Assembly (NCBI RefSeq): GCF_902726565.1 | Contig: NZ_CACVAF010000011.1 | Coordinates: forward strand, 62,001-126,000 | Direction of reading: 5' to 3' | DNA from: Yersinia vastinensis | GTDB taxonomy: Bacteria; Pseudomonadota; Gammaproteobacteria; Enterobacterales; Enterobacteriaceae | Length of the DNA: 64,000 bases | In this document: in pieces, positions 58,046 to 64,000 of the stretch | Numbering within the stretch: the first letter of the stretch is position 1 | How the letters are laid out: every line of letters starts with the position of its first letter | Translations under genes and position numbers: made by a program | Notes under the pieces: model-generated | Databases searched by the model: none | What the model was told of the DNA's origin: nothing | What the model saw: the letters and a program-made list of their open reading frames with translations, nothing else

Positions 58046-58557
58046 TTGCGTTATAGGTACTCCACGATATTCCTCTCGTGACATATTTTATGGAGAGGTT
58101 TTAATTCGTCTAACGACAACCACTATTTATTTTACGATTTATCCTCTCTATAAAATCAACAGTCTCAACAACATGCTGTTTTATTCTTAATATAGCGTTG
58201 AGTTTATAACCAAAAATGATTATGATAATTATTATCAAATAATGGCGCTATGTTAGAAGTTCTACTAGCATTAGGAAATTAACAAAATTCAGTTTGGCTG
58301 AAATAACGATGTACATTATTGAAGCCTATTACCTTGCCCACTAATAAAGCCATGTTCTTTATTTTCTAATTTAACGTCCCATTTATTTGATGCAGTAAAT
58401 TATTCAGCTCAAAGAAAATAACACAATATCAGCCACCGAATACTTTCTATTATTTGGCGACAATCCTATTGTCAAAATATGGGTATAACGCCATTAAATA
58501 ATGGCTAATTATTATTTTATATATTATTTCTATATTAATAAGGATGAAATATCATAA
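58046..58557. other. AT-rich leader and promoter region of hasR
   Basis: This 512-base gap holds the Fur-controlled hasR promoter (58198-58236) and then a long AT-rich leader of about 325 bases. The leader includes small inverted repeats such as GACAAT/ATTGTC and GCCATTA/TAATGGC near 58460-58508, and a ten-codon open frame near 58250. No known riboswitch was recognised. Confidence 0.55.
58198..58236 (+). promoter_or_regulatory. hasR promoter overlapped by a Fur box
   Basis: TTGAGT (58198-58203) and TATGAT (58221-58226) are separated by exactly 17 bases, a good sigma-70 promoter. The Fur box GATTATGATAATTATTATC (58218-58236) matches the 19-base consensus at 17 positions and covers the -10 element, so iron-loaded Fur would block initiation. 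Confidence 0.8.
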
Positions 58558-61092
58558 ATGGATAATATCGTTAGAGGTGAAAATACCGCAATAAAGCCTA
58601 TAAATAAAATGGCATTAAGTCTATTTTTAGCCCTTACTGCACAGGGGTATTCCGAGAGGGCCAATGCAGAATCATCTGGTGAGAGTGATATCGTACTGGA
58701 TGAACTGAAAGTAGAGGGAGCGAGCCACGCCCATGAGGGTGACTGGATCTATGATGAACCCCGCTCAGTGAGTGAGATTTCCCGCGAACAACTGGATAAC
58801 CGGCCAGCCCGCCATGTGGCCGATATTTTGGAACAAACACCGGGGGTTTACTCCAGTGTTAGCCAGAACGACCCAGCACTTTCGATTAATATCCGGGGCA
58901 TGCAAGATTATGGCCGCGTCAATATGAATATTGATGGCATGCGGCAGAACTTTATGAAAAGTGGTCATGGTCAGCGCCATGGGGTCATGTATATTGATCC
59001 GGAAATATTAGATACCGTGGTGATTGAAAAGGGGGCTTCCAGCGGAATAGGTGGCGCGGGGGTTATTGGGGGTATTGCAACCTTTAATACAATTAATGCC
59101 AATGAGTTTCTTGAGCCAGGAAAAGACATTGGCGGCAAGATTCGTGCTACCACCGGCGATAATGGCACCCAGTTTATTGGTAGTGCCGCACTGGCATGGG
59201 GCAATGAAGATGGCGATATATTAATAGCTGCCAGTGAACGTAATCTAAAAGACTATTGGCCGGGGAATAAAGGCTATATTGGTGAAATACGCATGGGGAA
59301 AAAAGAGAGTAAGTTTGACAATGATATTAAAAATAACAAAATAGCTTTCACTCACTATAAAATGCATTCACGGTTAGCCAAAGTCGGGTGGAATTTATCC
59401 GCTGATCAGCGGATAGGATTAAGCTATTTACAAACACATGTACATAGTCCCAACGCCGGCATGTTTACCCTTTTATATGATAAACACACACCACACATTT
59501 TCACGTATGGTTGGTTAAGTAACAGTACCAGTGATGTGATAAACCGTAATATCGGGTTGGATTATAGTCTAAAGCCGGAACATATTGCCTGGCTGGATGC
59601 AACCGCTAAAATTTATTATGTGGATACCAATGACCATACTGATACCCATAATGCCAATGCCGTTTACCGCAAACAATATTGGACCCAAACCCGTCTAACC
59701 ACCCACGGTTTACAATTACAAAATACTAGCTTGTTAACTTATGCTGATCACCACCAATTGCGTATTAAATATGGTCTTGATTGGTTTAGTGACCGTTCCA
59801 GAGGGCGAACAACTAATGACTATTTAGATATTATAACTCCAGTGGATAAAAGGGTGAATGGACTGACGCCATCGGGCCAGCGTGCCGTTAGCAGCACCTT
59901 TGCTCAACTTAATTACGATTATAGTGATTGGTTGCGATTAGAAGGAGGTCTGCGGCATGACCAATTTCGTATTCAAGGTAATACTTGGATGCCAACGAAT
60001 GGGTTTCGTCACCTCTATACACAAGATAACCCTTGTGACGCAAGAGTGCATGAGCAGTCCGAGGATGAAAATACTCGCTGTTCATCTAATGCACTCTTAA
60101 TGATGACATGGGATGTCAATCGCCGTGAGCAGCAACTCTCTCCCACGGCAGCTATTGGCATTAAGCCAGGTGTACAGTGGCTGGAATTTTTTGCTAATTA
60201 CGGTAAATCCTGGCGACCGCCGGCAATGACTGAAATGCTGGCTATCGGTAGTCCCCATGGTCATGGTTGGGTTCTACCGAATCCTTTTCTGGCGGCAGAG
60301 AATGCCAAAATTTGGGAAGCAGGTTTTAATATTCAGCATACCGGCCTATTTATTAATGAAGATCGTCTGGTTGCTAAATTAGCTTACTTTGATACCCGAG
60401 TAGCAGATTATATCAATCTTGAGCTATCTAAACAAAAACCAAAGTTTGGTGGTGAATCTTTTACTAATGCGACCTATATTAATAATTTACTAGCTACATA
60501 TTTTCGTGGTCTAGAGTATCAATTAAGTTATGATTCCGGTTTGTTTTATACCACAATAAATTATACCAGAATGATTGGTATCAATAGTGTTTGCTCAAAG
60601 CATGCTTGGTTAGGCGAAGTACAAAAATCTGTTAGGACAGGTTATTGGCGCTCTCCTAGATATCCTTACACATACACTATTAGGTATCCCATTGATGATA
60701 ATGATTCGAATAATAAGATAGAATGCCGCAGAGCAAATAATTTATTCGGTTCTTCAGCATATTTACCGGGTGATAGAGGGAGTTTAGTTTTAGGTGGCAG
60801 AATATTTGATCAAAAACTGGATTTCGGTACTATTATCCGTTATAACAAAGGATATCAAGATAGGTCAGTGACGAATAGATATGGTTACGCTAATACTGCT
60901 TATGTAGCAGACTGGCCAAAATATATTTTATTTGATATCTATGCCAGCTATAAGGTGACTAATAATTTAATCTTGAGGAGTTCAATAGAAAATATAACTA
61001 ATCGTGCTTATATTGTTAATTATGGTGATTCGCTTTCGCTTACCCCTAATCGTGGTCGTACTGTTCAGGGCAGCATTGAATATAGGTTTTAG
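58558..61092 (+). CDS. hasR: TonB-dependent haemophore/haem receptor HasR
   Basis: HasR is an outer-membrane channel that takes haem from the haemophore HasA or from haem proteins using TonB energy. The 844-residue precursor has an N-terminal signal (cleavage likely after ANA, residue 37), a TonB-box-like IVLDELKVEG (45-54), a plug (about 60-190) and a 22-strand barrel ending YRF. His137 and His141 in SGHGQRHG and the WRPP...PHGHG...NPF region (552-577, His567/569) fit the haem-ligand sites of the family. The plug begins right after the TonB box, so the N-terminal signalling domain of Serratia HasR is missing. Confidence 0.93.
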   Translation: MDNIVRGENTAIKPINKMALSLFLALTAQGYSERANAESSGESDIVLDELKVEGASHAHEGDWIYDEPRSVSEISREQLDNRPARHVADILEQTPGVYSSVSQNDPALSINIRGMQDYGRVNMNIDGMRQNFMKSGHGQRHGVMYIDPEILDTVVIEKGASSGIGGAGVIGGIATFNTINANEFLEPGKDIGGKIRATTGDNGTQFIGSAALAWGNEDGDILIAASERNLKDYWPGNKGYIGEIRMGKKESKFDNDIKNNKIAFTHYKMHSRLAKVGWNLSADQRIGLSYLQTHVHSPNAGMFTLLYDKHTPHIFTYGWLSNSTSDVINRNIGLDYSLKPEHIAWLDATAKIYYVDTNDHTDTHNANAVYRKQYWTQTRLTTHGLQLQNTSLLTYADHHQLRIKYGLDWFSDRSRGRTTNDYLDIITPVDKRVNGLTPSGQRAVSSTFAQLNYDYSDWLRLEGGLRHDQFRIQGNTWMPTNGFRHLYTQDNPCDARVHEQSEDENTRCSSNALLMMTWDVNRREQQLSPTAAIGIKPGVQWLEFFANYGKSWRPPAMTEMLAIGSPHGHGWVLPNPFLAAENAKIWEAGFNIQHTGLFINEDRLVAKLAYFDTRVADYINLELSKQKPKFGGESFTNATYINNLLATYFRGLEYQLSYDSGLFYTTINYTRMIGINSVCSKHAWLGEVQKSVRTGYWRSPRYPYTYTIRYPIDDNDSNNKIECRRANNLFGSSAYLPGDRGSLVLGGRIFDQKLDFGTIIRYNKGYQDRSVTNRYGYANTAYVADWPKYILFDIYASYKVTNNLILRSSIENITNRAYIVNYGDSLSLTPNRGRTVQGSIEYRF

Positions 61093-61165: not shown

Positions 61166-61182
61166 TGACTCATGATGAGTCA
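61166..61182. repeat. Palindrome before hasA1
   Basis: TGACTCATGATGAGTCA is a perfect palindrome around a central G. A near-identical copy stands before the second hasA gene at 61945-61962. Confidence 0.8.
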
Positions 61183-61213: not shown

Positions 61214-61819
61214 ATGACGATAGAGATAAAGTATCAAGTCCAATTCGCCAATGACACCCTCTCTAATGTTACTCAACAATGGGCAACAAAAAATGGAGAT
61301 ATAACCACATCACCAGCCAAAAAATATGGTTTTTTGGCTGGCGGTGACAGTTTTAGTGGTATTCAATATGCCGTACCCAGCTCACATAACGCTGATACTG
61401 CGATGATTGTAGAAGGTGATCTCAAATACTCCTTTATGCCTCAACATACTTTCTTCGGCAAGATGGACACTTTGGCACTAGGTGAGGTATTAGAGAATAA
61501 CACCAATGGCGAGGGTAAACAGCTTGCAGAATTACACATTAAATTCAGTGGATTAGATATTTCTGGTGAGTTTGACCCCCTAAAGACTAAGGAAGAGAAT
61601 CACCAAGGTGAGATGCATAAAGGCACCTACGGTTTTATGCGTGGCGATGCGACACCATTCTTGGATATCTTGAAAAGCAAAGGTATTGATGTGGATACAC
61701 CGCTGAAGGATATGGCTATTGCCAGCCAGTTTGATAATAGTGGTGAAATGGTATCTGATGCACCGGTCATTGATGTTATTGGTACATATGATGGCGCTGA
61801 AATATTAATGGCTGCTTAA
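61214..61819 (+). CDS. hasA: Haemophore HasA, first copy
   Basis: HasA is secreted by a type I exporter, captures haem and hands it to HasR. This 201-residue protein is close to the Yersinia pestis haemophore as I remember it. Tyr72 in GDLKYSFMPQHTFFG aligns with haem-ligand Tyr75, and His78 aligns with its hydrogen-bond partner His83. Residue 32 is Thr, where Serratia has His32 and Y. pestis Gln. There is no N-terminal signal peptide; the hydrophobic C-terminus (AEILMAA) is the exporter signal. AAAAGGA precedes the ATG. It follows hasR by about 120 bases and may be cotranscribed. Confidence 0.94.
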   Translation: MTIEIKYQVQFANDTLSNVTQQWATKNGDITTSPAKKYGFLAGGDSFSGIQYAVPSSHNADTAMIVEGDLKYSFMPQHTFFGKMDTLALGEVLENNTNGEGKQLAELHIKFSGLDISGEFDPLKTKEENHQGEMHKGTYGFMRGDATPFLDILKSKGIDVDTPLKDMAIASQFDNSGEMVSDAPVIDVIGTYDGAEILMAA

Positions 61820-61868
61820 GACCTCAATTAATCAATATCATTGTAGTTATATAATAAATGAAATTACG

Positions 61869-61912
61869 CCACCGCCATTCATTCTAATATCTGGCATATT
61901 GATTGGCGGTGG
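61869..61912 (+). repeat. Hairpin after hasA1 (same stem as after hasA3)
   Basis: CCACCGCCA pairs with TGGCGGTGG across a long loop. The following sequence is AT-rich but lacks a T-run. The identical stem occurs after the third hasA gene, so it may be a partial terminator or 3'-end protector. Confidence 0.75.
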
Positions 61913-61944
61913 TATTAGTAAATTCTTTATCTTACTATTCAGTA

Positions 61945-61962
61945 TGACTCAATGATGAGTCA
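61945..61962. repeat. Palindrome before the second hasA gene
   Basis: TGACTCAATGATGAGTCA repeats the palindrome found before hasA1 with one extra base in the centre. Confidence 0.8.
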
Positions 61963-61985
61963 TCGTTAATTAAAAGGAGATTATT

Positions 61986-62666
61986 ATGACTGTGAAAATA
62001 AAATATCAAGCACAAATTGAAAATGAAACTATTTCTTCCTACGCTCACCAATGGGCGGAAAAGTATGGAGATATAGTTGCAGTCATTAACGAAACTAAAA
62101 ATTATGAATATGCGGGTAGTTATTACTCATCTCATGGAACAGTTATTAATCCTACTGCTGAGGATTATAATAACCAAAGTGCGGGCTTTAGAAGTCTCTC
62201 AGAGAGTGATTCTGCGGTAATTTTCCAAGGAAATCTATTTGGTGCAGGAAAACCGATAGTCGTTAACAGAGGACATATTGAAAGTATAGAGTTTGGTGAA
62301 TCATTAAAACCTGATATCGATAATTCAGGTGCACCGCATTACCTGGATAATCCGCAGATGAAACTGAGTGGTTTAGATATTAAAGGTGATTTTTATAACT
62401 CAATGTGTTCAATGTCACGGACGCTGCACGCAGAACCAGGAAATCCCTATCAGGGAGGCACAAATCAAGGAATGTACAATCTATTGAGAGGTAACGCAGA
62501 ACCTATGCTGGAAGTTTTGAAAGCTCAAGGTATTGATGTGAATAAACCACTCAAAGATATGGCTATCGCCAGTCAGTTTGAAGTTACTAGTAGCGTGCTG
62601 GTTAACACGCCAGTCATTGAAGCCGTCGGCTCAAGTGATGGCAGCGAAATACTGATAGCAGTTTAA
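61986..62666 (+). CDS. HasA-like protein, second copy, without haem-ligand residues
   Basis: This 226-residue protein is a HasA paralogue: Tyr7, Trp23 and Gly28 align without gaps with HasA1, and the C-terminal half (LRGNAEPMLEVLKAQGIDV, PLKDMAIASQFE) is nearly the same. The ligand segment is changed: where HasA1 has GDLKYSF...H, this protein reads GNLFGAGKPIVV, so Tyr75 becomes Gly86 and His83 becomes Val92. Residue 32 is Ala. The exporter tail EILIAV remains. It also has an insertion around residues 110-160 with one Cys (141). It is probably secreted but may not bind haem in the known way. The leader AATTAAAAGGAGATTATT repeats that of hasA1. Confidence 0.85.
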   Translation: MTVKIKYQAQIENETISSYAHQWAEKYGDIVAVINETKNYEYAGSYYSSHGTVINPTAEDYNNQSAGFRSLSESDSAVIFQGNLFGAGKPIVVNRGHIESIEFGESLKPDIDNSGAPHYLDNPQMKLSGLDIKGDFYNSMCSMSRTLHAEPGNPYQGGTNQGMYNLLRGNAEPMLEVLKAQGIDVNKPLKDMAIASQFEVTSSVLVNTPVIEAVGSSDGSEILIAV

Positions 62667-62767
62667 TATCACACTATAAAAATAACCATATAAAATGAAT
62701 GAAAAAAATCTATTTTTATCCTGTGAGCTAATGATACCCAATAGCGATTAATTAAAAGGATATTATT

Positions 62768-63457
62768 ATGGCGGTAGAAATATGGTATCAGGCGAAAATT
62801 GAGAATGAAACGCTTTCTTCCTATACACGGAAATGGGCGGCAGATTTTGGTAATATGATGTCAAGTCACACAATTGATGATGATTACATGTTTCAAACGG
62901 GAACGTACTCTTCTAATTCTGGTAACTTATATGCATTCGGTCGAGTTAATCAACCACAAAATAATGTTGCCTTATCGGCGGGATATAGAGCGGTAATTCA
63001 AGATATTAATGGCGATATATTCGATCAACAAGTCGTCACTGGCATTAGTGGTAGTTTGGAATTTGGTGAGAGCATAATACCTATCGCTGATGTTGAGTTA
63101 TTAGATGAGTGCCAGAATGGAGATGAGGTTTATTTTCAGATTGATGATGTACAACTGGATATTAGTGGATTAGACAGTGCTGGTGATACCGAAAGTTCGT
63201 TAAATATGTTGCTTCATTTATCCCGTCATCGCGATTGTCCCGATGGGCAAAGTCTTGGCGTGTACGGTTTACTCAGGGGAGATGCTGAACCTATACTGGC
63301 AAAATTCAAAGCTCAGGGTATTGATGTTGATACACCACTTAAAGATATGGCTATTGCTAATCAGTTTTATACCGCCAATGATGATGTTATGGTCGAATCG
63401 GCAGTTATTGAAACCGTGGGGGTGATTGAAGGAAACGAAGTATTGTCAGTAGCTTAA
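62768..63457 (+). CDS. HasA-like protein, third copy, without haem-ligand residues
   Basis: This 229-residue protein is the third HasA paralogue, closer to the second than the first (QAKIENETLSSYTRKWA; LRGDAEPILAKFKAQGIDV). The segment that should hold the haem tyrosine and histidine (about residues 76-100) contains no Tyr or His. Residue 32 is Ser, with His34 nearby. Two cysteines (115 and 157) could form a disulfide, unusual for a type I exporter substrate. The tail NEVLSVA fits the exporter signal. The leader AATTAAAAGGATATTATT again matches hasA1. Confidence 0.85.
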   Translation: MAVEIWYQAKIENETLSSYTRKWAADFGNMMSSHTIDDDYMFQTGTYSSNSGNLYAFGRVNQPQNNVALSAGYRAVIQDINGDIFDQQVVTGISGSLEFGESIIPIADVELLDECQNGDEVYFQIDDVQLDISGLDSAGDTESSLNMLLHLSRHRDCPDGQSLGVYGLLRGDAEPILAKFKAQGIDVDTPLKDMAIANQFYTANDDVMVESAVIETVGVIEGNEVLSVA

Positions 63458-63498
63458 TAAAGGCTGCTAAAAAATGATTTTTGGCTAGCCAGATAATA

Positions 63499-63545
63499 CC
63501 ACCGCCATAATGAGTTGATAACTTAAATAGTTATATTGGCGGTGG
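63499..63545 (+). repeat. Hairpin between the third hasA gene and hasD
   Basis: The CCACCGCCA/TGGCGGTGG stem found after hasA1 occurs again here with a different loop. In this position it could lower hasD expression relative to the haemophore genes. Confidence 0.75.
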
Positions 63546-63624
63546 ATAAAAGGTGTATTGCTTTGAGAAATAAAATAATACGAACTCAAGTCATAATGCT
63601 ACTTTCAGTATGGAAATGGATGCC

Positions 63625-64000
63625 ATGAAATCATATGAAAACTCAGATCCTGCGTCGGCCGCGATAACCGTTCTTTCAGTTATCGCTGGACACAAAAAAA
63701 ACCTTTGGGGGATTGGACTATTTACTGCGGTAATTAACATTTTGATGTTAGCACCTGCCATTTATATGCTGCAAGTTTATGATCGTGTTCTTGCTTCAGC
63801 TAATACCATGACATTATTGATGCTCACTATTCTGGTACTGGGAATCTTTATATTTATTGGTTTGCTTGAATGGATCCGTAGTGCTGTTGTCATTCGTTTA
63901 GGCACTCGTATTGATATGCAACTTAATCAACAGGTGTTTAATGCTGCATTTGCCTCTCAACTCATGGGGAATAAAACTCCAGCAGCTCAAGCATTAAATG
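63625..64000 (+). CDS. hasD: Type I secretion ABC transporter HasD (5' part only)
   Basis: HasD is the inner-membrane permease-ATPase that exports HasA with HasE and an outer-membrane channel. Only the first 125 codons lie in the window. They hold two membrane helices and the motif MLAPAIYMLQVYDRVLAS, characteristic of type I exporters of the PrtD/HasD group. The ATG at 63625 has GGAA nine bases upstream; ATG codons at 63610 and 63616 are in frame but poorly placed. The ATPase half must follow past the window end. Confidence 0.88.
   Translation, partial: MKSYENSDPASAAITVLSVIAGHKKNLWGIGLFTAVINILMLAPAIYMLQVYDRVLASANTMTLLMLTILVLGIFIFIGLLEWIRSAVVIRLGTRIDMQLNQQVFNAAFASQLMGNKTPAAQALN

What the first reader, a model, noticed from the sequence alone, without database searches (positions are those of the whole stretch)
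61214..63457. Three tandem HasA-type haemophores of which two have lost the haem-binding residues
The known haemophore binds haem through Tyr75 supported by His83, with His32 (Serratia) or no second ligand (Y. pestis, Gln32). HasA1 here keeps the Tyr-His pair. In the second copy an ungapped 26-residue alignment puts Gly and Val at those places. In the third copy there is no Tyr or His in that segment at all. Both changed copies keep the N-terminal Tyr7/Trp23/Gly28 frame, a nearly unchanged C-terminal half and an exporter-type tail. They look like intact, selected genes rather than decaying ones. They may bind another ligand, bind haem differently, dock HasR as decoys or co-receptors, or act on host haem proteins.
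Basis: partly seen in the sequence, partly recalled or inferred. Interest (0 to 1): 0.85.

Follow-up and report, generated by a model that had tools for sequence, protein, structure and literature searches.

The report
Haem-scavenger gene array with rebuilt copies
Beside one normal gene for a secreted haem-scavenging protein, this Yersinia carries two intact sister genes whose haem-gripping part has been rebuilt, and related species carry similar sisters, so they probably do a different, still unknown job.

Summary
The window carries a has operon with a Fur-like box: hasR, hasA1, hasA2, hasA3, then hasD, hasE and hasB beyond the window end. HasA1 keeps the Tyr-His pair (Tyr72/His78 here); HasA2 has Gly/Val there and HasA3 neither. 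In 25 of 25 genomes of the genus the operon holds 1-5 intact hasA genes (67 in all). Every first copy has the Tyr (24 of 25 also the His). Of 42 later copies, 4 have the Tyr and 1 has both. HasA2 and HasA3 belong to a group of 32 later copies (support 100/98) with no Tyr at that place, no canonical His/Met in the next helix, and a segment 6-9 residues longer before that helix. Later copies show purifying selection like the canonical copy (mean dN/dS 0.16-0.35 against 0.24), and no remnants were found, so they are not decaying. Most likely they are co-exported HasA-fold proteins that no longer bind haem in the HasA way and serve as accessory binding proteins. Ligand and function are inferred, not shown: no structure model was obtained, and no binding data turned up in the literature listings and passages seen.

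The parts
58218..58236 (.). Fur-like box upstream of hasR
   Evidence: 17 of 19 letters of a recalled consensus; the only place in the window within 3 mismatches; 0.02 expected by chance
58558..61092 (+). hasR, TonB-dependent receptor, 844 aa
   Evidence: TIGR01785 over cut-off; solved HasR 3csl at E 3.6e-275, equivalents of His189 and His603 kept as residues 137 and 567
61166..61182 (+). palindrome in the leader of hasA1
   Evidence: read; repeated before hasA2; does not fold better than shuffles
61214..61819 (+). hasA1, canonical HasA (type I); Tyr72 codon 61427-61429, His78 codon 61445-61447
   Evidence: PF06438 188.9 bits; residues
61868..61913 (+). GC-rich hairpin after hasA1
   Evidence: fold of 61840-61925, z -4.5, 0 of 200 shuffles as good
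61945..61962 (+). palindrome in the leader of hasA2
61986..62666 (+). hasA2, diverged copy (type II), Gly/Val at the ligand places; conserved Cys141 codon 62406-62408
   Evidence: PF06438 91 bits
62768..63457 (+). hasA3, diverged copy (type III); His150-xxx-His154-xx-Cys157 at 63215-63238
   Evidence: PF06438 53.6 bits
63499..63545 (+). GC-rich hairpin after hasA3
   Evidence: fold of 63460-63560, which holds a second hairpin too, z -5.0, 0 of 200 shuffles as good
63610..64000 (+). start of hasD (ABC exporter), continuing in L033 with hasE and hasB

Best explanation
A has operon in which hasA was duplicated and the later copies became a subfamily of co-secreted HasA-fold proteins that no longer bind haem in the HasA way. 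Shown by sequence: loss of the Tyr-His pair and of the canonical His/Met in the next helix; a segment 6-9 residues longer before that helix; kept frame (Tyr7, Trp23, the Gly of the LEFG strand) and tail; presence in many species; purifying selection. Inferred: low-iron expression with the operon, export by HasDE through the shared tail, and a role as accessory binding proteins whose rebuilt loops recognise something else. The most plausible target is a haem-carrying protein or other haem-linked partner, so that they would serve HasA1/HasR somewhat as the haemopexin-binding HxuA or the non-haem-binding NEAT domains serve their systems.
For: Types II-VI, 32 rows: no Tyr at the ligand place; canonical His135 and Met142 of HasA1 kept in 0 of 32 each, against 24 and 25 of 25 in type I and 6 of 6 in the outgroup. 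Segment of 23-26 residues against 17. One group at 100/98. Mean dN/dS 0.258 (II) and 0.236 (III) against 0.236 (I). All inside one operon with receptor and exporter in 25 of 25 genomes. Precedents: HxuA acts on haemopexin without binding haem (passages of PMC3832793); some NEAT domains lack the Tyr, do not bind haem and one contacts haemoglobin (passages of PMC4143258).
Against: No partner, secretion or expression was shown. Conserved Cys141 (11 of 11 type II rows) and His150/His154 (7 of 7) with Cys157 (6 of 7 type III rows) could be new haem or metal ligands. HasA of Serratia is reported to take haem from haemoproteins passively, without a protein complex (passage of PMC3832793), so carrier binding would be a new trait. 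The aromatic-pocket count is low in the outgroup too (2.33 of 6), so its low value in later copies is weak evidence. One later copy (G002_2) keeps Tyr and His.
Confidence: 0.42

Rival explanations
1. The later copies still bind haem or a metal through type-specific ligands: Cys141 in type II, His150/His154/Cys157 in type III, both in the rebuilt segment before the helix that holds the canonical His/Met. They would be haemophores, or metal binders, with altered ligation.
For: Cys141 in 11 of 11, His150 and His154 in 7 of 7, Cys157 in 6 of 7. A passage of PMC4143258 reports that another residue can take over as ligand when the Tyr of a NEAT domain is lost.
Against: No residue is shared by all types as a substitute; type V has few conserved candidates. 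No structure places these residues near a pocket.
Confidence: 0.25
2. They dock HasR without haem, as competitors, co-receptors or shields of the receptor, for example against agents that use HasR as an entry point.
For: Same operon as hasR; the Gly of the LEFG strand is kept in 67 of 67 copies.
Against: The loop next to the HasA residue that bonds HasR (Asn62, passage of PMC6981324) has changed sequence and often length. In three related genomes hasR and hasA1 share one history (dS 0.03-0.14) while the later copies share another with hasD (0.45-1.27), so later copies can be inherited apart from hasR.
Confidence: 0.14
3. They bind an unrelated small ligand or a surface, using the Has exporter only for delivery.
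For: Both haem loops differ in sequence and length among types.
Against: They stay within the haem operon, always after a canonical copy, in 19 of 19 multi-copy genomes.
Confidence: 0.14
4. They are decaying duplicates.
For: Copy number varies from 1 to 5; median dN of later copies is 2.2 times that of hasA1 in 33 comparisons.
Against: 67 full-length ORFs, 0 of 4493 tblastn hits outside them, mean dN/dS at most 0.35 in any type.
Confidence: 0.03

Closest known systems
HasA haemophore (PF06438; solved chains such as 4jer, 3ell, 1dk0)
   Same: Family match over cut-off, same operon, shared frame residues and tail
   Different: HasA2 and HasA3 lack the Tyr-His pair and the canonical His/Met of the next helix and have a longer segment before it
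HxuA of Haemophilus influenzae
   Same: By analogy only: a haem-uptake protein reported not to bind haem but to act on haemopexin (passage of PMC3832793)
   Different: Another secretion route (HxuB, same passage); homology was not tested
Non-haem-binding NEAT domains (IsdB NEAT1, IsdH NEAT1/2, IsdX2 NEAT2)
   Same: By analogy only: relatives of haem binders that lost the ligand and support haem acquisition (passages of PMC4143258)
   Different: Domains of Gram-positive proteins rather than separate genes behind a type 1 exporter; homology was not tested

Membership tests
HasA family PF06438 (HasA2, HasA3) | Profile match over the curated cut-off | tested here: met
   91 and 53.6 bits against 26.3
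HasA family PF06438 (HasA2, HasA3) | Gene lies between hasR and hasD/hasE | tested here: met
HasA haemophore (HasA2, HasA3) | Axial ligand Tyr75 | tested here: not met
   Gly in HasA2, no Tyr in HasA3 at the aligned place; HasA3 Tyr73 lies in another register
HasA haemophore (HasA2, HasA3) | Partner His83 next to the Tyr | tested here: not met
   Val in HasA2, Gln in HasA3; no His in either alignment
HasA haemophore (HasA2, HasA3) | Binds haem and delivers it to HasR | not testable with these tools
   needs purified protein
HasA haemophore (HasA2, HasA3) | Exported by HasDE through the C-terminal signal | tested here: inconclusive
   tail conserved among types; export itself not tested
HasA haemophore (HasA1) | Family match with Tyr-His pair | tested here: met
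Accessory haem-carrier binder (HxuA-like working) | Binds a haem-carrying protein without binding haem | not testable with these tools
   analogy only

The most novel reading that the evidence does not exclude
Yersinia has turned the haemophore fold into a repertoire of secreted binding proteins. Frame and export tail are held, in a few cases homogenised by gene conversion, while both haem loops and a longer segment are rebuilt in at least five conserved types. Each species carries its own set behind one true haemophore, aimed at different haem carriers or other partners.
Probability: 0.33. Interest if true: 0.8.

Novelty: new variant of a known kind. Interest (0 to 1): 0.62.

Why it matters
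HasA is a textbook haemophore defined by its Tyr-His grip on haem. A genus that keeps one such gene and, in 19 of 25 genomes, one to four selected relatives, 41 of 42 of them without the pair, raises the question of what this fold does when it does not hold haem. The question is directly testable because a canonical sister, the receptor and the exporter lie in the same operon. It also warns against naming every PF06438 protein haem-binding.

Tried and rejected
Decay was tested and disfavoured. Genus-wide homogenisation of the tail was tested and is weak: within-genome pairs exceed between-genome pairs by 0.038 identity in the last part (run on an alignment in which a slip in my script had cut the start of the window's HasA3; corrected), with three clear cases among 80 within-genome pairs. 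The first alignment missed that the second copy of G002 keeps Tyr and His; the count was corrected from 0 to 1 of 42. The dN/dS table and the tree had the same slip and are replaced. The leader palindromes do not fold beyond shuffles. NCBIfam gave no family for HasA1-3. PHROGs gave nothing for HasA3 and only E 0.049 for HasA2. A plasmid search with HasA2 alone found no match. Ten literature searches showed no paper on tandem or ligand-less HasA copies among the rows listed; several lists were cut (20 of 170, 20 of 938), and most subscription journals are not held. A Yersinia enterocolitica genome paper that I vaguely recall as mentioning several hasA genes is not held, so earlier mention cannot be excluded.

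Full report
What is there. The window holds argH (named by eye from its translation), then hasR (58558-61092), hasA1 (61214-61819), hasA2 (61986-62666), hasA3 (62768-63457) and the start of hasD. The contig continues with open frames for hasD, hasE and hasB (Pfam ABC exporter, HlyD and TonB_C). HasR matches solved HasR at E 3.6e-275 and keeps the equivalents of His189 and His603. A Fur-like box lies at 58218-58236, the only such place in the window within three mismatches (consensus recalled). All three HasA proteins pass the PF06438 cut-off.

The ligand residues. HasA1 has Tyr72 and His78 where solved HasA and an outgroup HasA have their Tyr and His. HasA2 has Gly and Val. HasA3 has neither at the aligned columns, though Tyr73 lies shortly upstream in another register. 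The loss is wider than two residues. In the group that holds HasA2 and HasA3, the canonical His and Met of the next helix (His135 and Met142 of HasA1; outgroup numbers 133 and 140) are kept in 0 of 32 rows each, against 24 and 25 of 25 in type I and 6 of 6 in the outgroup. The mean number of aromatic residues at six places, chosen after the aromatic network reported for Y. pestis HasA (passages of PMC9627568; mapping mine, one place aligns badly), is 0 to 1.5 per type against 4.72 in type I. It is also only 2.33 in the outgroup, which has the Tyr-His pair, so this count alone proves little.

The genus. PF06438 was sought in the 25 genomes held of the genus and found in 25. The arrays were fetched and hold 67 intact hasA frames between hasR and hasD: one copy in 6 genomes, two in 7, three in 5, four in 3 and five in 4. 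Every first copy has the Tyr (25 of 25), 24 with the His and one with Tyr in its place. Of 42 later copies 4 have the Tyr (three of type VIII, one of type VII) and one of these has both residues. Five of the 32 rows of types II-VI have a His at the partner place without the Tyr.

Types. A maximum-likelihood tree of the 67 gives nine groups, each one side of a branch, though type I only at 50/32. HasA2 is type II (11 rows), HasA3 type III (7 rows). Types II to VI, 32 rows, form one group at 100/98 and have 23-26 residues where canonical copies have 17. With six outgroup HasA, all six with Tyr and His, type I is no longer one group and the later copies arise from within it; their union has weak support (82/73), and the tree needs at least 3 changes of the Tyr state. 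The types were drawn from an earlier tree of the same rows, so their clustering is a check, not an independent test. Position 141 is Cys in 11 of 11 type II rows; 150 and 154 are His in 7 of 7 and 157 is Cys in 6 of 7 type III rows.

Selection. Pairwise dN/dS within types (Nei-Gojobori, pairs with dS under 1.5) averages 0.236 for type I (136 pairs), 0.258 for II (32), 0.236 for III (10), 0.156 for IV (6), 0.266 for V (21), 0.208 for VI (3), 0.232 for VII (6), 0.349 for VIII (4) and 0.249 for IX (1); the highest single value, 0.78, is a type I pair with dS 0.03. Pairs within a type are not independent. In 33 comparisons of the same species pairs, later copies have a median dN 2.2 times that of hasA1. 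Part of this reflects recombination: among G008, G012 and G018, hasR and hasA1 have dS 0.03-0.14 while later copies and hasD have 0.45-1.27. tblastn with all 67 proteins found no HasA-like remnant outside the 67 genes in the 25 arrays (0 of 4493 hits).

Anatomy. Each window gene has its own leader with a shared ribosome-site block, and hasA1 and hasA2 share a palindrome. The gap after the first copy is 147-255 nt in the 19 multi-copy genomes; the 23 gaps between later copies are 16-181 nt. Strong GC hairpins follow hasA1 and hasA3 in the window (z -4.5 and -5.0). Folding energies in other species suggest the same plan, with an extra low-energy gap after the second copy in G020 and G024, but these were not set against shuffles. 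In three of 80 within-genome pairs the tail is at least 85% identical while the head is about 50%, which points to gene conversion of the export tail.

Outside the genus. In a draw of 394 genomes of the order 8 have a match, three of this genus and one below the cut-off. In 119 of the family 6 have one, two of this genus and four with a single copy. In 369 of the class only the window's own has one. G025 has two matches, at far-apart places, one in an 843-residue frame. Tandem arrays were seen only in this genus within these samples.

How it most likely works. Shown: intact, selected, operon-linked HasA-fold genes without the canonical haem grip. Inferred: expression under iron limitation, export by HasDE, binding of another partner through the rebuilt loops. 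I favour accessory binding proteins with haem carriers as the likeliest partners, because the genes stay in the haem operon and because there are precedents (HxuA in PMC3832793; NEAT domains in PMC4143258). Against it, Serratia HasA is reported to take haem passively without complex formation, and a passage of PMC3852070 reports no role of Has in Y. pestis virulence models, so a medical role should not be assumed. Altered haem or metal ligation in types II and III is the main rival.

Novelty. The listings of ten searches and passages of twelve papers gave no description of ligand-less tandem HasA copies; no paper was read whole. One genome paper that might mention several hasA genes is not held. 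As the genes match PF06438, this is a new variant of a known kind rather than a new kind. On checking, the odds of the favoured reading were set at 0.42 and of the boldest at 0.33, because the outgroup scores low on the pocket count.

Noticed in passing
L044 742-4060 (G011): hasR of one genome is split into frames of 617 and 201 aa by a stretch of about 0.86 kb that holds two small frames, which look by eye like those of an insertion sequence of the IS1 kind, while its hasA copies stay intact.
   Followed up: partly
L041, L045, L051 (G008, G012, G018): hasR and hasA1 have far lower dS than the later copies and hasD, as if a recombination break lay just after hasA1.
   Followed up: partly
L064 (G025:C1:1595401-1595808): A HasA-family match inside an 843-residue frame rich in repeats, in a genome of another family of the order.
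   Followed up: no
window 61868-61913 and 63499-63545: Two hairpins with the same CCACCGCCA arms follow hasA1 and hasA3; similar arms appear after first or last copies in several other species.
   Followed up: partly
L049 (G016), copies 2-5: One genome has its own expansion (types VIII and IX) with varied letters at the ligand places (Tyr/Tyr, Ser/Lys, Ser/gap, Cys/Cys) and gaps of only 27-35 nt between these copies.
   Followed up: no
L053 4-copy array (G020), first copy: The only first copy of 25 without the partner His; it has Tyr there instead.
   Followed up: no
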